Positions 24,395 through 58,192 of a stretch of 64,000 nt of DNA are shown one piece after another. Within the stretch, counting starts at the first letter, position 1; each line of letters begins with the position of its first letter. The position numbers and the translations under genes were made by a program. Location of the stretch: assembly GCF_000093025.1 (NCBI RefSeq), contig NC_014207.1, forward strand, positions 2,356,001 through 2,420,000, read 5' to 3'. The stretch is from Methylotenera versatilis 301. GTDB lineage: Bacteria > Pseudomonadota > Gammaproteobacteria > Burkholderiales > Methylophilaceae. The notes beneath the pieces were generated by a model. The model saw only the letters and a program-made list of their open reading frames with translations. It did not search any database and was not told the origin of the DNA.

Positions 24395-24419
24395 GATTCC
24401 CGCCTACGCGGGAATGACG
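24395..24419. repeat. REP-like palindrome, right end of GIY-YIG unit
   Basis: Inverted copy of the palindrome at 24068-24092, starting four bases after the GIY-YIG stop codon and ending nine bases before the glyS ATG. It therefore occupies the place of the glyS ribosome-binding site. Confidence 0.9.
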
Positions 24420-51665: not shown

Positions 51666-52031
51666 CTAGCGGTGACCGCCATGGCGCCCCTCATCGTGTC
51701 CTCCGCGACTCCAATCGCCTCGATCACCATCGCCATGACCCCAACCATGATGCTCACGGCCTTCGTGACGCCAGCCTCTATCATAATCGCGGTATCCTAC
51801 ATTGTAATACTGGTATGAAACGGCAGGCTGATAATACACAGGTTGCGGAGCACGGTAATAAATGGGCTGACTGTAGTACACCACAGGCGGCGCAGGATAA
51901 TAAGCAACTGGTGGCGCATAGCCATAACCGCCGATGTTAACACCCAAACTAAAAGAATCTCGCGCAGAGGCAGTAGATATAGAAGCCACACCAATGGCTA
52001 AAGCAATAACAGCAGAACGTAATAATTTCAT
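51666..52031 (-). CDS. Exported Tyr/Pro-rich protein with His/Gly-rich tail, unknown function
   Basis: A 121-residue protein with a signal peptide (residues 1-23, cleavage at TASA). A Tyr/Pro-rich middle follows (YPAPPVVYYSQPIYYRAPQ), then a His/Gly/Arg/Asp-rich tail (HEGREHHGWGHGDGDRG). No family is recognised beyond low-complexity exported proteins. His-rich tails often bind metals. It has good start signals. The stop codon faces that of pncC with ten bases between. Confidence 0.7.
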   Translation of the reverse strand: MKLLRSAVIALAIGVASISTASARDSFSLGVNIGGYGYAPPVAYYPAPPVVYYSQPIYYRAPQPVYYQPAVSYQYYNVGYRDYDRGWRHEGREHHGWGHGDGDRGDWSRGGHDEGRHGGHR

Positions 52032-52132: not shown

Positions 52133-52558
52133 TTAAGCCAACCAAACTGCAGTTATCAGCAAAAAAAATTGCACAAATACCAATACCAACCCACGGTTAA
52201 ATAGCCTATAACTGCCTTGTAATCTCTCCTCTAAAGCTCTACCTGTCTGATGCTTTGGGTTGATGTTGCTAAGCGCATCATCTAACGCGTTAATCTCAAA
52301 GCTATCCCACTGTTCAAACAAAGTAATATCTATGCGTATACGTAGCGCAAAGTAAAAAACTCCCAAACCCACTGCTAATATTAATATTGCCAACACTTTG
52401 AGTGGCAACTCAGGTGTATATATGAAAGCAACGATTGCAAGCAGATTATTCGCCAAAGCAAGCAGCTCGGCTAATTTAAATGCTTTGAGCAGAGACAGAA
52501 TCACGCTTAATTTTGCATGCACTTTAGGCTTAGTGTGGCTTAACTCAGAATCACTCAT
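52133..52558 (-). CDS. Small membrane protein, last gene of the ynb-like cluster
   Basis: A 141-residue protein with about three hydrophobic helices (about 38-50, 52-75 and 118-140) and a short cytoplasmic N-terminus. No family is recognised. The ATG lies one base after the stop codon of the PAP2/phosphatase gene, so it is translationally coupled and part of the operon. Between the second and third helices is an acidic loop (about 80-115) with Arg/Glu-rich sequence. It may be an accessory subunit or regulator. Confidence 0.7.
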   Translation of the reverse strand: MSDSELSHTKPKVHAKLSVILSLLKAFKLAELLALANNLLAIVAFIYTPELPLKVLAILILAVGLGVFYFALRIRIDITLFEQWDSFEINALDDALSNINPKHQTGRALEERLQGSYRLFNRGLVLVFVQFFLLITAVWLA

Positions 52559-52559
52559 C

Positions 52560-53897
52560 TCAATCCAACTCTTTTAGCGCTTGTTCGATATTAGCTTCAT
52601 GCTCTTTGCTTAAAACTACACCTACTCTCTTAGTATCTATCATAGCAATGGCCTGTTGAACACTATCAGCATGCCCACGCCAAACTAGCCAGCAAGCTAC
52701 TACACTGCTACTTCGCGACAATCCCAAAGCACAGTGCACCAACACGTCACCTTGCTGTTGTGTACGCTCTAACCAACGCACTGCACGGACTAGGGTTTTC
52801 GGCTTAGGTGGCGTTAAATCTAAAACTGGCAGATATTTTTGAATTGGGGCCTTAAGTACAGAAGCTGGAAACTCATTGGTTAAATCCATCACACCATGCC
52901 AATTTATGCCAAGATTGCTCACTGCAGTTCTTGGAAAGGCTCCCAGCCACACATTACTATGAATTTTATTGGGTAAAAATCGACGCTTGGTATACATGCG
53001 ATAGCTACACCAACTTAAAAATAAATACGGTGCCAATAAAAATTTGGCTGGCCAACGCATATTGCCACGCCTGACGGATAGGCTATCCCGCTGAAATACC
53101 TGTTGCTCAAATCCTAAATATGCAAAACTTATGAGCGTTAATGCAATAGTCGTCCACATAAAAATAGCCGCGAGTAAAACTGAAACCTGATGAGCAAGCA
53201 TTGATGCAACTATCGTGCATGCGGCTAATAGACCATAGCGCATTGCTAGCCGCCTCATTTGCGCAGTTGGTTTCTGCCAACGCCATGAGAATGGCTGATC
53301 TGGAATCAGATACAAACAAGCAACGCCCACCAAAGCACCTGTCCAAACATCAATAAAATGATGCTGATAAACCAGCAGCACAGAAGCGGCAATGGCAAAA
53401 AACCAAATGTGCAAAGCCATACGCGCAAAGCCTTGCAGGCGCTTAGCGTACAACTCCCACAAGACTATCAGCAGACTGATATGTAATGAGGGTGCTTGGT
53501 TATAGGGCTTATCAAACCCCAGCAAAATCGCCTGCAACGCTCCATTAAAACCGTCTGCTTTAGGCACTTCAAAAGAGAATTGCAGCGGATACAGCAAAAA
53601 GCCGATAAGCGAAACTACCGTTGCCAGCAAGAGCCTGAGCGCATGTCTATCCAGCGCGCTACGCTTACGAAACAAAAATAGCGACGCTGCGTAAAATGCA
53701 TCAATCGACATATAAGGCAACATCAGCCATGGCACAAATGGTAATTGATGCTCCCAAGCTTCAACCATCACGCCTAAATCGCTACGCCCGCTGGTGTAGT
53801 AATTCACCCAGCCATAACTTAGAAAGAAAAATGGACCGAGAAGCGCTAGCCAAATGGCGCCGCGCTTCCATAAGATAGGTGATTGATTGATTTGCAT
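52560..53897 (-). CDS. PAP2/dual-specificity phosphatase fusion (YnbD-like)
   Basis: A 445-residue membrane protein. The N-terminal part (about 1-240) is a PAP2-type phosphatase with about seven helices. PSLHIS is its second motif and HHFIDVWTG the third, and the first motif (KxxxxxxRP) is poorly conserved or absent. The C-terminal part (about 300-445) is a dual-specificity phosphatase with the P-loop VHCALGLSRSSS (Cys about 388). NCBI names this architecture phosphatase PAP2/dual specificity phosphatase; E. coli YnbD has it. Such phosphatases could remove phosphate from a phosphatidyl-polyol phosphate, as PTPMT1 does. It lies five bases after the hydrolase-methyltransferase gene. Confidence 0.85.
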   Translation of the reverse strand: MQINQSPILWKRGAIWLALLGPFFFLSYGWVNYYTSGRSDLGVMVEAWEHQLPFVPWLMLPYMSIDAFYAASLFLFRKRSALDRHALRLLLATVVSLIGFLLYPLQFSFEVPKADGFNGALQAILLGFDKPYNQAPSLHISLLIVLWELYAKRLQGFARMALHIWFFAIAASVLLVYQHHFIDVWTGALVGVACLYLIPDQPFSWRWQKPTAQMRRLAMRYGLLAACTIVASMLAHQVSVLLAAIFMWTTIALTLISFAYLGFEQQVFQRDSLSVRRGNMRWPAKFLLAPYLFLSWCSYRMYTKRRFLPNKIHSNVWLGAFPRTAVSNLGINWHGVMDLTNEFPASVLKAPIQKYLPVLDLTPPKPKTLVRAVRWLERTQQQGDVLVHCALGLSRSSSVVACWLVWRGHADSVQQAIAMIDTKRVGVVLSKEHEANIEQALKELD

Positions 53898-53902
53898 AGA
53901 CT

Positions 53903-55690
53903 TTAGCGACGTTTTGCTAGAGATACACTAAATATGCCCCAAGTATCGGTCAATTGGTCAATCTTCTCAAACCCTGCTGCTGCAACTAATTGATCCATCT
54001 CACGTTGCGTGCGCCTGCGCATTACCCACGCTTTATTTTGGCGATGACTGGTTAATGTTCGCGCAATCAATTCCAACTGTGGATGCCATGGTTGATTGGT
54101 ATAGACTAAGTATCCATCGTCTTCTAAAGCTGCATGAACGCCTTTTAGCGAGGTTTGTATTAACGAATTTTCAGGAAATAATTCATATAAGCCAGACACA
54201 ATCGCCAATGTTGGTTTAGGCGTAACTGCTGCAATTGAAGCTGCATCAAACGCATCGGCTAATTCAAATTGAGCTGTATTTTCTAAACTATGCTGCTTAA
54301 TCATTGCACGCCCAGCCGTCACATTCAGCTCACTATAATCACGCATTAATACGTGGTCAGCTTTTACTGCAAGCGCTGCATCTAAAACATAACGACCATG
54401 CCCAGCTGCAATATCCATCATACGCACTGGCTTTTGTGCTGCTCGTAAGAGTGCTGCGGCTTTAGCCAACATCGCTTCATTATGTATTTTACGTACACGA
54501 ATGCCGCGCCAGCCTATGGCATTGAGGTAAGTACGGTCGATAATTTCACCCAAAGCGCCGCCAACAAATGTTCTGCTTCGGGCTTTATTTTCGTACACAT
54601 AATCCAGCGTGCTGCCTGAATCAAAGCCAGTATCCACGCTCAGTTTCAAGCCATGGGACATATTGCTGCCAAATCGAATGTTAGCTCGGGTAGCTGCAAA
54701 ATATAGGTTTTTCAGGCTAAACGTAGGTAAAGGCTTTTTCAGTTGCTCGGCTTCGTCAAAGGTATAGCCTGAAAGGTCTGCGTTGGTTAAACTAGGTTCA
54801 GCAAATGCTGTTGAAAACTGTTTTTCTATAAACTCACGCGCCTTCGCCAATGGTAAATGACGATCTTTTTCACCCAGTGTATCGTGAAAAAAGCCTTCAA
54901 ACTCGTGATACTCTTTACTGCTAGCACCTAACTTTTCATATAAGTCTTTGACTGGTTGTTGGTGCACCACCCAATCACTACCTGACACTAAAAACTGCGT
55001 TGGCGTGGTAATTGCCGCCGCATCTTTTACCAAACGCTCGGCAGTATCATACAATTCCAGCAAAATATTCACTGCAATTGGACGGGTAATTAATGGGTCA
55101 TTGTCGTATGAGGCTATGCGTGTTTCATCGTGGGTTAACCATTTGGCTTTTACATAAGAGTTCACAAAAGCCAGAGCAGGCACTAATTTTGTTAGTCCTA
55201 GAGCTTGCATTAGAGCAAGAGAAGCGCGAGCAAACGGCACATACAATTTCACCTTAAGCGCTGGTGAAGCCAATACCAAACTGCGAATATTCGGCGCGTA
55301 ATCATGTACCCAAGCTGCGGCAATCACCCCTCCGACGCTTTGTGCAATCACAGAAATATCTTCCATCTCAAAACCATGTTTGCTGCAAATATGCCGCGCA
55401 AACACATCTGCATCTTTGACCAGCACGCCAAAATTTTCTGCATATCCACGTACGCCTGGAGACTTACCTAAACCACGAGCGTCCCAAGCGAAACAATCGT
55501 ACTCTGGCATATTTAAGCCATCTACCACATCTTGCTGACGGCCAGAATGCTCATGCCCACGATGGAATAAAATGATTGCTCGTTTGTTATTACCCTGCTG
55601 CTGACTTGGCCAATGGCGATAAAAAATCTCAGCACCATCTATCGCGGTAAAGGTATGCTCTTCTGCTACTCTAATCATGACAAATTCCAT
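53903..55690 (-). CDS. Alpha/beta-hydrolase and SAM-methyltransferase fusion (YnbC-like)
   Basis: A 595-residue bifunctional protein. The hydrolase half (1-300) resembles serine aminopeptidase S33/monoglyceride lipase: FHRGHEHSGRQQ oxyanion region, AQSVGG with the nucleophile Ser (the first Gly of GxSxG is Ala), and the catalytic His in FFHDTLG. The methyltransferase half (about 330-590) has MMDIAAGHGRYVLDAAL as SAM motif I. Residues 310-420 between them are a variable part. The same fusion occurs in E. coli YnbC. The likely substrate is a lipid or acylglycerol-type molecule, as judged by the cluster. An inverted repeat and a REP doublet lie upstream, so it may have its own promoter. Confidence 0.87.
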   Translation of the reverse strand: MEFVMIRVAEEHTFTAIDGAEIFYRHWPSQQQGNNKRAIILFHRGHEHSGRQQDVVDGLNMPEYDCFAWDARGLGKSPGVRGYAENFGVLVKDADVFARHICSKHGFEMEDISVIAQSVGGVIAAAWVHDYAPNIRSLVLASPALKVKLYVPFARASLALMQALGLTKLVPALAFVNSYVKAKWLTHDETRIASYDNDPLITRPIAVNILLELYDTAERLVKDAAAITTPTQFLVSGSDWVVHQQPVKDLYEKLGASSKEYHEFEGFFHDTLGEKDRHLPLAKAREFIEKQFSTAFAEPSLTNADLSGYTFDEAEQLKKPLPTFSLKNLYFAATRANIRFGSNMSHGLKLSVDTGFDSGSTLDYVYENKARSRTFVGGALGEIIDRTYLNAIGWRGIRVRKIHNEAMLAKAAALLRAAQKPVRMMDIAAGHGRYVLDAALAVKADHVLMRDYSELNVTAGRAMIKQHSLENTAQFELADAFDAASIAAVTPKPTLAIVSGLYELFPENSLIQTSLKGVHAALEDDGYLVYTNQPWHPQLELIARTLTSHRQNKAWVMRRRTQREMDQLVAAAGFEKIDQLTDTWGIFSVSLAKRR

Positions 55691-55724
55691 TTATTGAGGT
55701 TTTAACTAAAAAACATTTTACAAC

Positions 55725-55744
55725 ATAACTATATAATTAGTTAT
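55725..55744. promoter_or_regulatory. Inverted repeat upstream of the YnbC-like gene
   Basis: ATAACTA, six bases, then TAGTTAT. It lies 35-54 bases upstream of the start codon in the minus direction. The central TATAAT reads as a minus-10 box on the plus strand only. It may be an operator, with no known regulator. Confidence 0.35.
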
Positions 55745-55832
55745 TTAGTTTTATGTGTCAAGCGCTTTGTAAAAATGCTTTAAGTTGATATTGAACAGCA
55801 ACTCAGATATATAAAACTTGAACTCCCTTTTT

Positions 55833-55905
55833 CCGTCATTCCCGCGTAGGCGGGAATCAAGTCAGTGCAGATTAGCCTAGATTCCCGCCTACGCGGGAAT
55901 GACGG
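55833..55905. repeat. Paired REP-like palindromes (doublet), GIY-YIG-free form of the element
   Basis: Two perfect inverted 26-base copies (55833-55858 and 55880-55905), outer ends CCGTCATTCCCGCG and CGCGGGAATGACGG, separated by 21 bases. Bases next to the inner ends (AAGTCA on the left, AGCCTA on the right) match those inside the ends of the GIY-YIG unit at 24.1-24.4 kb, inverted. The doublet can fold into a long hairpin. It lies between the NTF2-fold and YnbC-like genes. Confidence 0.9.
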
Positions 55906-55966
55906 TTAAGGAATATATTCGTGAGTAATTGAATGGCAACTACTTTGTATTAAATGCTCGTAAGAA

Positions 55967-56572
55967 TTATGATTTTTTTCGACGTAAAAACACCATGCCC
56001 AGCACGCCTAGCAGCAAGCCAAGCACTAAACCGCCTACAGCATAATATTTAGTCGAATCTTTAACTGCCGCAAAAATAGGATTGTCATAAAAGTTTGTAC
56101 CTATATGCAAAGCTAGAATGCGCCATTTACCATCAGCTTCTTTAATCACCGTGGCGGTCCAGCGTGTTTTCATGGCTAAATTGCGGCCATCCACTAATTG
56201 ATAGTTTTCTGTACCAGACCCATAAACCAATCCCCAACTTGGGTTTGCGGGGTCACCATATAAGTCGGTTAAAGCATCTGGCGTTAACTTAATGTCTAAT
56301 TTTTTTAAATAGCCACCTTTGCCAAACCAGTCTTTAAAGTAAGCATCTATGCCATCTGGTGTAGAAATTACATTTTGGTTGATGGTGGTTATTTTTAACT
56401 TGTCATCAAAATACTGTTTTAAATCACCATATTTTTCAGTATTAATCGCCTTTTCTATGCCTTGCAATAACCCGCGCAGCTCCTCATGTATCGCGTGGTT
56501 AGGCTCTTCAGTGGCAGCAAAGCTCGTGCTATTCATTAACAAGCAAACGATTATTAGTAATTTCTTCAACAT
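55967..56572 (-). CDS. Exported NTF2/SnoaL-fold protein with C-terminal membrane anchor
   Basis: A 201-residue protein. The signal peptide (1-19) ends in SFAA, then an NTF2-like domain (about 25-160) has the pattern LRGLLQGIEKAINTEKYGDLKQYFDDKLKITT, a middle with GLVYGSG and the final strand WRILALHIG. A final helix (about 175-195) plus RRKKS tail anchors it in the inner membrane with the domain in the periplasm. NTF2-fold domains often bind small molecules or lipids. It is inserted between the CdsA-like and YnbC-like genes, 62 bases after the former. E. coli ynbABCD has no such gene, as far as I recall. Confidence 0.78.
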   Translation of the reverse strand: MLKKLLIIVCLLMNSTSFAATEEPNHAIHEELRGLLQGIEKAINTEKYGDLKQYFDDKLKITTINQNVISTPDGIDAYFKDWFGKGGYLKKLDIKLTPDALTDLYGDPANPSWGLVYGSGTENYQLVDGRNLAMKTRWTATVIKEADGKWRILALHIGTNFYDNPIFAAVKDSTKYYAVGGLVLGLLLGVLGMVFLRRKKS

Positions 56573-56634
56573 ACGATCAATCTCCCTTTACATGATGCAA
56601 ATTTTAAATTTGCTGTTTCACAAAATCTGTCGCT

Positions 56635-57561
56635 TCAATAGTGCAGATAATACACAAAATGAAAAAACAATGGCGCGGTATAGGTCAGACTGTCAACACG
56701 GTCGAGAATACCACCGTGACCTGGAATCAGATTGCCCGTATCTTTAATACCCAAGTCGCGTTTCACGGCTGAAATACTCACATCTCCCACAAATCCAGCT
56801 AATCCAATCAGCACGCCTGCTGCAAGTGGCTCCCAACCGACCAGCGGCGTTAAATAAGGCGCTAGCAGCCATGACAACATGGTCGTTGTTACGATTCCGC
56901 CGAGTAAACCACCTAAGGTTTTATTGGGGCTAACCTTGGGAATCACTTTAATACTACCCAGCAATTTACCCCACACATACTGCATGATGTCGTTAAATTG
57001 CGTAAGAAACACCAAAAACAAAAGTATGCCCGCGCTACCAGCCGCTGGATTAACCTGATTAGGCAATGCAAGTAAATACGCCGCATGCGAGAGTAAAAAT
57101 ACCGTTGTCATCAAACCCCAGTGCAAAGTGCCTGCGGCCTTCAAAAATCCTTGTGTTTCGCCTTCTATCAGCATGCGAAGCGGCATCAGCAAAAACATAT
57201 AGACAGGAATAAAAATGATAAACATGCCATACCAACCCAGCCAAACCCACAAATACTGTAGCGGAATGGCGAGATACGCCCATAGCAACACACGTTTATC
57301 GGCGCTTCTAGTAGGAATAATACTGAGATATTCTTTTAGCGCTAAAAAGCTCACTAGCACGAAAAATAACACACCCAACGTACGGTTCACGGCAATGGCT
57401 AAAATAAACAATCCTGCCATCATCCACCAAGAGCGCATGCGCAAACCAAGTTCATGGTCAGACGCACTTGGGCGAAATACTCGTTTAAGCCAAATAATCA
57501 GCGTGCCTGTGATAAGTACAATGACTACTCCCCACAAAGCAATCTGCAAATTAATCGGCAT
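56635..57561 (-). CDS. Phosphatidate cytidylyltransferase (CdsA family, YnbB-like)
   Basis: A 308-residue membrane protein with about eight helices and the full CdsA signature near the C-terminus, SAVKRDLGIKDTGNLIPGHGG then ILDRVDSL. It makes CDP-diacylglycerol from phosphatidate and CTP. Placed beside a CDP-alcohol phosphatidyltransferase and overlapping it by 11 bases, it probably provides substrate to that enzyme. The main housekeeping cdsA is not in the window, so this could be a paralogue like E. coli ynbB. Confidence 0.88.
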   Translation of the reverse strand: MPINLQIALWGVVIVLITGTLIIWLKRVFRPSASDHELGLRMRSWWMMAGLFILAIAVNRTLGVLFFVLVSFLALKEYLSIIPTRSADKRVLLWAYLAIPLQYLWVWLGWYGMFIIFIPVYMFLLMPLRMLIEGETQGFLKAAGTLHWGLMTTVFLLSHAAYLLALPNQVNPAAGSAGILLFLVFLTQFNDIMQYVWGKLLGSIKVIPKVSPNKTLGGLLGGIVTTTMLSWLLAPYLTPLVGWEPLAAGVLIGLAGFVGDVSISAVKRDLGIKDTGNLIPGHGGILDRVDSLTYTAPLFFHFVYYLHY

Positions 57562-58192
57562 GCAGAGCCTTTGCAGTTTCTTTCAATGCGCCTCTAGCAC
57601 GATTGAAAATCGTCATTACCAATAGCAACAGCATTACGACGAACAACCAGTTCACCCAGCCGCCAAACGGCATGCCTATGCCAAGCGCCAGAGCGACTGC
57701 GCCTAACCAGAATGCACGGTCACTTTTACCCATAGGCCCTTGGTACTGGCGTGTTGCGCCAATCTGCACGGCAACCACACCCATCATTTCGCTGATAGTC
57801 GCCAGTAGTACTAGCAACACGATCAAGCTTGCACAGATGCGAGGCAGCAAAGCTAAAGGCAAATACAAGGCAGCATCAGCAACCACATCGCCCAATTCAT
57901 TCAATATTGCGCCTAATTTAGATTGTTGAGCATGCTCACGAGCTAACATGCCATCTATCGCATTCAAACCCATACGCAAAAACAGCACTAAAGGTAGAGC
58001 CAACAAAGGCCAAGTGGCATCAGGCTGCCAAGCAATTAAAGCCCCGCCGATAAAGGATAAAATCACTGCTGCAATAGTCACCTGATTGGCAGTAACACCC
58101 GCACGCGCAAGAGCATTGACAATAGGTCTTAACAAGGCTTGAAATCGTGGTTTTAAATCGTATATCGAAGGCAAAATAATTTCCTCATTCAT
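57551..58192 (-). CDS. CDP-alcohol phosphatidyltransferase (YnbA-like), variant motif
   Basis: A 213-residue membrane protein with about five helices. The catalytic motif is LNAIDGMLAREHAQ...LGAILNELGDVVAD. Compared with the consensus DxxDGxxAR...GxxxDxxxD, the first Asp is Asn and the third Asp is Asn. Two Asp of four remain. The pattern NAIDGMLAR and NELGD seems conserved in this branch, so it may use a different metal geometry. The family joins CDP-diacylglycerol with an alcohol or polyol phosphate. It is the first gene of the cluster and overlaps the CdsA gene by 11 bases. Confidence 0.88.
   Translation of the reverse strand: MNEEIILPSIYDLKPRFQALLRPIVNALARAGVTANQVTIAAVILSFIGGALIAWQPDATWPLLALPLVLFLRMGLNAIDGMLAREHAQQSKLGAILNELGDVVADAALYLPLALLPRICASLIVLLVLLATISEMMGVVAVQIGATRQYQGPMGKSDRAFWLGAVALALGIGMPFGGWVNWLFVVMLLLLVMTIFNRARGALKETAKALHAD

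What the first reader, a model, noticed from the sequence alone, without database searches (positions are those of the whole stretch)
52133..58192. Six-gene cluster like E. coli ynbABCD that could make an undescribed, methylated glycerophospholipid
Seen: a CDP-alcohol phosphatidyltransferase and a CdsA-type enzyme overlap by 11 bases. They are followed by an NTF2-fold exported protein, an alpha/beta-hydrolase-methyltransferase fusion, a PAP2/dual-specificity phosphatase fusion and a coupled membrane protein. Known: E. coli ynbA, ynbB, ynbC and ynbD have the same domain content and order, and to my knowledge no product has been defined. PTPMT1, a dual-specificity phosphatase, dephosphorylates phosphatidylglycerophosphate. 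Inference: CDP-diacylglycerol is made, joined to a polyol phosphate, dephosphorylated by the fusion phosphatase, and the head group or acyl chain is altered by the hydrolase and methyltransferase. The canonical pgpA is separate, at 50.7 kb, so this is probably a parallel route.
Basis: partly seen in the sequence, partly recalled or inferred. Interest (0 to 1): 0.78.

Follow-up and report, generated by a model that had tools for sequence, protein, structure and literature searches.

The report
Arc1/Ynb lipid cluster in Methylotenera
This is a bacterial gene cluster for making or repairing an unidentified membrane lipid; it is related to a little-known E. coli cluster and very probably to a Pseudomonas cluster that helps cells survive membrane-attacking toxins, and its key enzyme has an unusual active site.

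Summary
The six genes are real and lie where stated. Four are orthologues of E. coli YnbA-D (39-52% identity, same relative order). The last gene (Orf6) is a family component; the NTF2-like gene was found almost only in Methylotenera and sits where related clusters carry an acyltransferase (PlsC).

The commonest family order, ynbA-ynbC-ynbD-orf6-plsC-ynbB (89 of 112 loci), fits the published description of Pseudomonas aeruginosa arc1A-F (PA2541-36), needed to survive type VI secretion attack, including lipase effectors. I did not compare the PA genes directly. So "undescribed" fits the lipid product, not the kind of cluster.

The proposed chemistry (polyol-phosphate transfer, then YnbD dephosphorylation) is weakened: YnbA has Asn at two of four signature Asp positions in 119 of 120 relatives and lacks the Arg/Lys that follows D4 in inositol-phosphate enzymes; E. 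coli YnbD did not replace PGP phosphatases (published); inositol-1-phosphate synthase was not found.

New here: a PlsC-CdsA pair elsewhere in the genome looks like the missing half. YnbA-family genes and this CdsA occur in the same 9 of 100 Methylophilaceae genomes, and 5 of 5 genomes with the recA-linked YnbA lack the pair's usual YnbA-like neighbour.

The parts
57551..58192 (-). YnbA: CDP-alcohol-phosphatidyltransferase-fold enzyme with the variant motif N-x2-DG-x2-AR-x8-G-x3-NE-x2-D
   Evidence: Pfam PF01066 above cut-off; 46.5% to E. coli YnbA; AlphaFold2 pLDDT 92.5, nearest solved folds PIP synthases; motif
56635..57561 (-). YnbB: CdsA-type CDP-diacylglycerol synthase, E. coli-like subtype
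   Evidence: PF01148 215 bits; 46.8% to E. coli YnbB; tree, 12-row set with E. coli at 100/100
55967..56572 (-). Exported or membrane-anchored NTF2-like protein (hydrophobic N terminus, C-terminal hydrophobic helix), in the place of plsC
   Evidence: PF14534 below cut-off; hydropathy and tblastn: Methylotenera cluster loci plus one weak match, L103
55833..55905 (.). Perfect 26-base inverted repeat with a 21-base spacer, in the gap between the two halves of the cluster
53903..55690 (-). YnbC: monoacylglycerol-lipase-like hydrolase fused to a SAM methyltransferase
   Evidence: PF12146 and PF12147; best solved relatives of the hydrolase half are monoacylglycerol lipases; Ser motif in 112 of 112, Asp in 110, His in 105, SAM motif in 111
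52560..53897 (-). YnbD: PAP2-like membrane domain fused to a dual-specificity phosphatase
   Evidence: PF00782 above, PAP2 below cut-off; motifs; Foldseek finds DUSPs including PTPMT1
52133..52558 (-). Orf6: small membrane protein without a named family; a family component (fits arc1D by position, inferred)
   Evidence: no Pfam or NCBIfam match; hit in 103 of 112 loci with YnbC, 21 of them under 60 bits

Best explanation
It is a Methylotenera version of the Ynb/Arc1 cluster, a specialised phospholipid synthesis and remodelling pathway. Inferred route: the acyltransferase PlsC2 (encoded elsewhere in the genome) makes phosphatidate; YnbB and/or CdsA2 make CDP-diacylglycerol; YnbA, a CDP-alcohol-phosphatidyltransferase-fold enzyme with a re-arranged metal site, moves the phosphatidyl group onto an unidentified acceptor. 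YnbC (hydrolase plus methyltransferase), YnbD (PAP2-like plus phosphatase) and Orf6 finish, methylate or turn over the product at the membrane. The likely purpose is to keep the envelope intact under phospholipase attack, as shown for the P. aeruginosa cluster that it resembles. Shown here: gene content, conservation, motifs, co-occurrence and partner exchange. Shown by others: the arc1 phenotype and YnbB activity. Inferred: that PA2541-36 is this family, every substrate, the order of steps, and the purpose in Methylotenera.
For: Content and order: of 112 loci with YnbC, YnbA is in 111, YnbD 109, YnbB 104, Orf6 103, PlsC 100; 89 have the full order ynbA-ynbC-ynbD-orf6-plsC-ynbB (two pairs of loci are the same genome). 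Sampling by YnbA instead: 31 of the 41 strong genomes have YnbC; in the other 10, YnbB lies by YnbA in 9 and PlsC in 8. Arc1: six genes, five phospholipid-related, four like phosphatidylglycerol-synthesis enzymes, needed against T6SS attack (PMC8926400); arc1A needed for full resistance to lipase effectors TseL and Tle1 (PMC12663445). Own-genome PlsC2-CdsA2 pair: CdsA2 is 50-58% identical to the YnbB of 26 clusters but 39% to the window YnbB. In 100 Methylophilaceae the 9 genomes with CdsA2 are the same 9 with a YnbA-family match. Partner exchange: 5 of 5 genomes with recA-linked YnbA lack the YnbA-like gene before PlsC2; 6 of 6 other carriers have it. One of the 5 (G500) kept only ynbA of the cluster at that site.
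Against: PA2541-36 sequences were not compared; the match rests on the paper's description, on gene order in named Pseudomonas species and on recalled gene names. The Gac/Rsm regulation of arc1 was not tested here. In B. thailandensis competitions no single effector explained the Arc1 defect (PMC8926400), so a lipase-specific role rests on the later paper. The cluster is patchy (4 of 100 family genomes), and its role in a methylotroph is untested. In the window genome no T6SS VipB was found. The six YnbA-like genes beside PlsC2 carry Arg after D4, unlike YnbA, so an exchange with identical chemistry is not certain. The family co-occurrence is not phylogenetically independent, and in five of the nine genomes the two genes are neighbours.
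Confidence: 0.5

Rival explanations
1. One reading: YnbA joins CDP-diacylglycerol to a polyol phosphate, YnbD removes the phosphate in the manner of PTPMT1, and YnbC methylates the head group or chain, giving a new phospholipid.
For: YnbA's nearest solved relatives are PIP synthases; the DSP half of YnbD matches DUSPs including PTPMT1; Arg198 of YnbA, which aligns with the inositol-phosphate ligand R195 (PMC4634129 passages), is invariant in A1. The YnbA-like genes beside PlsC2 have Arg after D4.
Against: Asn at D1 and D3 (119 of 120); no Arg/Lys after D4 in 120 of 120, where R94Q nearly abolishes activity in the M. tuberculosis enzyme (PMC6506517 passages); no inositol-1-phosphate synthase hit in the genome; E. 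coli YnbD fails as a PGP phosphatase.
Confidence: 0.18
2. A clean-up and salvage system rather than a maker of a new lipid: lysolipids made by phospholipases are hydrolysed by YnbC and YnbD or re-acylated by PlsC, and YnbB and YnbA return the product to ordinary phospholipids.
For: The hydrolase half of YnbC is most like monoacylglycerol lipases and has a lysophospholipase L2 hit; PlsC lies in 100 of 112 clusters; arc1A contributes to lipase resistance (PMC12663445).
Against: It gives no role to the methyltransferase or to the altered YnbA site; deleting arc1A and aas besides arc3A did not add to the arc3A defect (PMC12663445); ynbA-ynbB-plsC occurs without YnbC and YnbD.
Confidence: 0.2
3. 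A backup route to the glycolipid MPIase (GlcNAc-pyrophosphoryl-diacylglycerol), with YnbB as the main enzyme.
For: E. coli YnbB overproduction raises MPIase and YnbB does not complement cdsA for bulk phospholipid (PMC6362211 and PMC7018664, passages).
Against: Deleting ynbB did not significantly change MPIase; it explains none of YnbA, YnbC, YnbD, Orf6 or PlsC; the cluster is absent from most relatives, whereas those papers call MPIase essential in E. coli.
Confidence: 0.06
4. A redundant route to ordinary phosphatidylglycerol or phosphatidylserine.
For: Four arc1 genes resemble phosphatidylglycerol-synthesis enzymes (PMC8926400).
Against: The genome has canonical PgsA and PssA with intact D/D motifs, and PgpA; YnbA lacks that motif; E. 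coli YnbD does not supply PGP phosphatase.
Confidence: 0.06

Closest known systems
E. coli K-12 ynbABCD
   Same: Four orthologous proteins in the same relative order; same N/N motif in YnbA; same YnbB subtype.
   Different: E. coli has no NTF2-like gene, Orf6 or PlsC in the cluster. The window cluster is split by a 276-base gap with an inverted repeat.
P. aeruginosa arc1A-F (PA2541-36)
   Same: Six genes, five phospholipid-related; the named Pseudomonas loci have ynbA-ynbC-ynbD-orf6-plsC-ynbB, which fits that description. Gene-by-gene assignment is inferred and partly recalled.
   Different: The window has the order ynbA-ynbB-NTF2-ynbC-ynbD-orf6 and no plsC in the cluster; Gac/Rsm control not tested.
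Clusters of Chromobacterium, Aquitalea, Andreprevotia and L142
   Same: Order ynbA-ynbB-x-ynbC-ynbD-orf6.
   Different: x is plsC there and the NTF2-like gene in the window.
YnbA-like/PlsC2/CdsA2 triple beside pssA in other Methylophilaceae
   Same: Same three enzyme types; N/N motif in the YnbA-like gene of 6 of 6.
   Different: Only distantly like YnbA (63-68 bits on the YnbA profile), Arg after D4, no YnbC or YnbD hit.

Membership tests
E. coli Ynb system | Orthologues of YnbA, B, C and D in one cluster in the same relative order | tested here: met
Arc1 (antagonism resistance cluster 1) | Sequence homology to PA2541-36 | not tested
   P. aeruginosa genes were not among the fetched loci; the link rests on PMC8926400's description and on other Pseudomonas loci
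Arc1 (antagonism resistance cluster 1) | Six-gene content with CDP-AP, hydrolase/methyltransferase, PAP2-DSP, small membrane protein, PlsC and CdsA (my reading of the content) | tested here: inconclusive
   Five of six in the window; PlsC2 with a second CdsA about 178 kb away
Arc1 (antagonism resistance cluster 1) | Gac/Rsm control | not tested
   published for P. aeruginosa (PMC8926400); no search made for it here
Arc1 (antagonism resistance cluster 1) | Protection against T6SS or lipase effectors | not testable with these tools
   needs competition or phospholipase assays
CDP-alcohol phosphotransferases | Fold | tested here: met
   PF01066 above cut-off; Foldseek TM 0.74 by query length to 5d92
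CDP-alcohol phosphotransferases | Eight-residue signature D1xxD2G1xxAR...G2xxxD3xxxD4, called absolutely conserved in PMC4634129 (passage) | tested here: not met
   D1 and D3 are Asn in 119 of 120 YnbA (1 is A/N); D2, G1, G2 and D4 kept
Phosphatidylinositol-phosphate synthases | Arg/Lys after D4 (R94 of the M. tuberculosis enzyme) and a source of inositol phosphate | tested here: not met
   V105 I11 M2 L2 of 120; no PF01658 match in the genome
PAP2 phosphatases | C1, C2 and C3 motifs (C1 form recalled) | tested here: inconclusive
   C2/C3-like PSLH and HHxxD in 106 and 105 of 110 YnbD rows; the C1-like stretch is degenerate in the window; Pfam score below cut-off
PGP phosphatases (PTPMT1-like role) | Supplies PGP phosphatase activity in vivo | not testable with these tools
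   published test of E. coli YnbD was negative (PMC7413402 Table 2, passage); the window protein itself is untested
MPIase synthesis | Makes GlcNAc-PP-diacylglycerol | not testable with these tools
   published only for E. coli CdsA/YnbB

The most novel reading that the evidence does not exclude
YnbA founds a catalytically distinct branch of the CDP-alcohol phosphotransferase fold (Asn at D1; Asn-Glu at D3 and D3+1) that makes a phospholipid not yet described, which YnbC methylates; this lipid hardens membranes against phospholipase toxins. E. coli ynbABCD and Pseudomonas arc1 would be the same system, and in some Methylotenera the imported YnbA took over a resident PlsC-CdsA pair after its native YnbA-like partner was lost.
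Probability: 0.3. Interest if true: 0.74.

Novelty: new variant of a known kind. Interest (0 to 1): 0.52.

Why it matters
The four E. coli ynb genes have no agreed role as a cluster, and arc1 has a defence phenotype but no chemistry. Treating them as one family makes both testable together: E. coli K-12 becomes a convenient host for the chemistry, and the arc1 phenotype gives a reason for the genes. The N/NE site in YnbA is a concrete lead: either a new way to run CDP-alcohol transfer or a different reaction. If the lipid guards against phospholipases, it would be a membrane-hardening defence unlike re-acylation by Aas.

Tried and rejected
Rejected or weakened: (a) inositol phosphate as acceptor: no PF01658 match in the genome (the control found it in 6 of 14 genomes) and no Arg/Lys after D4. 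(b) YnbD as a plain PGP phosphatase: published negative test. (c) The NTF2-like gene as a core component: tblastn over the loci held then found it only in Methylotenera cluster loci, plus one weak match (L103, 22.5%, E 5e-8, close to that cluster). (d) One six-gene operon: neither shown nor excluded. (e) Tree support for grouping the window YnbC with the Chromobacterium-order clusters was weak (85/93), so the idea that NTF2 replaced plsC rests on gene order. (f) Structure of YnbD: mean pLDDT 79, pTM 0.62; Foldseek hits were to the DSP half, with no PAP2 entry among the 50 rows shown, so the PAP2 half gained no structural support. (g) Mobility: YnbC relatives on 29 of 72,556 plasmid records, all under 60% identity; no recent source found.

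Literature limits: open-licence PMC only. Searches for ynb genes; for arc1/PA genes; for PIP synthases. I saw PMC8926400 as outline, sections 5 and 6 and passages; PMC6362211, PMC8609368, PMC12663445, PMC4066749, PMC6506517, PMC4634129, PMC7413402, PMC11888443, PMC7018664, PMC13031359 and PMC9603957 as passages; other papers as listings. 'ynb' has no occurrence in PMC8926400, PMC12663445 or PMC11888443, and 'arc1' none in PMC7413402. I claim only that these four papers do not make the link.
Full report
What is there. Domain calls are; the PAP2 and NTF2/DUF4440 calls are below Pfam's cut-offs. A 276-base gap with a perfect 26-base inverted repeat separates ynbA-ynbB-NTF2 from ynbC-ynbD-orf6. 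The window is part of a 3,059,871-base contig.

Relation to E. coli. YnbA, B, C and D are 46.5, 46.8, 52.3 and 38.6% identical to the K-12 proteins, which lie in the order A-B-C-D. In E. coli, 4579 of 5426 complete genomes hold a match to the K-12 cluster, 4242 with at least 80% of it.

The wider family. PF12147 (YnbC) is in 31 of 397 phylum genomes and 4 of 100 family genomes, all four in the window's genus. I surveyed 112 loci with YnbC (30 unnamed, 80 named, the window and E. coli) with profiles made from the unnamed set. YnbA is in 111, YnbD in 109, YnbB in 104, Orf6 in 103 (21 of them under 60 bits) and PlsC in 100. The order ynbA-ynbC-ynbD-orf6-plsC-ynbB is found in 89. The set was chosen by YnbC, so YnbC itself is not informative. 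Chosen by YnbA instead, 41 of 397 genomes have a strong match and 31 of these have YnbC; in the 10 others YnbB lies near YnbA in 9 and PlsC in 8. Hence a core of PlsC, CdsA-type enzyme and YnbA, with YnbC, YnbD and Orf6 as an add-on.

Two subtypes. The YnbB tree separates the window, E. coli, the four clusters with order ynbA-ynbB-plsC-ynbC-ynbD-orf6 (L104, L119, L133, L142) and five ynbA-ynbB-plsC loci from the Pseudomonas-like type, with 100/100 support. The window order equals that of the four, with the NTF2-like gene in the place of plsC.

The link to Arc1. PMC8926400 (sections 5 and 6) names PA2541-36 arc1A-F: six Gac/Rsm-controlled genes, five related to phospholipid metabolism and four like phosphatidylglycerol-synthesis enzymes, needed by P. 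aeruginosa against the type VI secretion of B. thailandensis and not against general stress. The named Pseudomonas loci of this family have six genes of that make-up. PMC12663445 (passages) finds arc1A needed for full resistance to lipase effectors of V. cholerae and A. baylyi, with an auxiliary part beside arc3A. I did not compare the PA sequences themselves, so the identity of the clusters is a strong inference and not a test. The window genome also has an Arc3A-family match (PF10101) and no VipB match.

YnbA is unusual. PMC4634129 (passage) calls eight residues of the D1xxD2G1xxAR...G2xxxD3xxxD4 signature absolutely conserved. YnbA has Asn at D1 and D3 in 119 of 120 sequences where the motif can be read (117 of 118 after removing duplicates), with Glu after the D3 position in 120 of 120. 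PgsA and PssA of the same genome have the normal Asp residues. The residue after D4 is V, I, M or L in 120 of 120, whereas PMC6506517 (passages) finds Arg or Lys there in inositol-phosphate enzymes and near loss of activity on changing it to Gln. The fold is still that of PIP synthases. No inositol-1-phosphate synthase was found in the genome. This argues against a phosphorylated inositol acceptor and weakens, without excluding, other phosphorylated polyols.

The missing half. The window genome has a second CdsA-type gene beside a PlsC gene and pssA, about 178 kb away (L008). This CdsA2 is 50-58% identical to the YnbB of 26 clusters elsewhere but 39% to the window YnbB. In 100 Methylophilaceae genomes CdsA2 is found in 9, and a YnbA-family match at E 1e-10 in the same 9. 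Of 11 carriers looked at (these nine plus G495 and G500), 6 have a YnbA-like gene (N/N motif, Arg after D4) just before PlsC2. The 5 that have the recA-linked YnbA (the window genome, G420, G478, G484, G500) have none there. G500 keeps only ynbA of the cluster at the recA site. The simplest reading is that the cluster's YnbA took over the PlsC2-CdsA2 pair. Cautions: the genomes are related; the Arg difference means that the two YnbA kinds may not run the same reaction; G495 was checked for recA-linked YnbA only at its recA locus, and G500 for a YnbA-like gene only in the 878 bases before PlsC2.

The site. Of 21 congeners searched, 19 have recA. Fifteen of the 19 show no YnbA hit within 1.5 kb upstream of recA, and 13 of these 15 show cinA there, one only the small PXPV-like gene, and one neither. 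So the cluster sits in a place that is usually empty: a gain in some species or a loss in others.

Mechanism. Best reading: PlsC2 makes phosphatidate, YnbB/CdsA2 make CDP-diacylglycerol, YnbA transfers the phosphatidyl group to an unknown acceptor, and YnbC, YnbD and Orf6 modify or turn over the lipid. The likely benefit is tolerance of phospholipases. YnbB making CDP-diacylglycerol in vitro is published for E. coli (PMC7018664 passage). YnbD as a PGP phosphatase was tested in E. coli and not found (PMC7413402). The acceptor, the role of the methyltransferase and the order of steps are inference.

Verdict. I rate it a new variant of a known kind. The most useful new points are the probable identity of ynb and arc1, the N/NE site of YnbA, and the exchange of YnbA partners in Methylotenera.

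Noticed in passing
window 55833-55905: Perfect 26-base inverted repeat (CCCGC-rich, REP-like) in the gap inside the cluster; a similar core palindrome also at 24399.
   Followed up: partly
L008:7326-9835: plsC2-cdsA2-pssA run in the same genome; order plsC2-cdsA2-pssA in 10 of 11 loci looked at, the other (L203) ending before pssA.
   Followed up: yes
L230:7821-8423 (G500): A congener keeps ynbA alone between recA and the PXPV-like gene, without ynbB, NTF2, ynbC, ynbD and orf6 at that site.
   Followed up: partly
L231:573-1487 and L073:6165-7079 (same genome, G484): ynbB is broken by an in-frame stop in this congener although ynbA, ynbC and ynbD hits are whole and CdsA2 is present.
   Followed up: no
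L060, L061, L062: In three genomes of one family (f59), ynbA is divergent from ynbC-ynbD and no PlsC or YnbB hit lies within the fetched stretch.
   Followed up: no
L103:11944-12444: Weak NTF2-like relative (22.5%) close to the ynb cluster of a betaproteobacterial MAG.
   Followed up: no
window 51666-52031: Small secreted Gly/His/Tyr-rich PXPV-like protein between cinA and the cluster; relatives lie in the same slot in several congeners.
   Followed up: no
L227 (own genome 2895714-2897969): Arc3A-family protein (PF10101, 634 bits) in the window genome, with no VipB match.
   Followed up: partly
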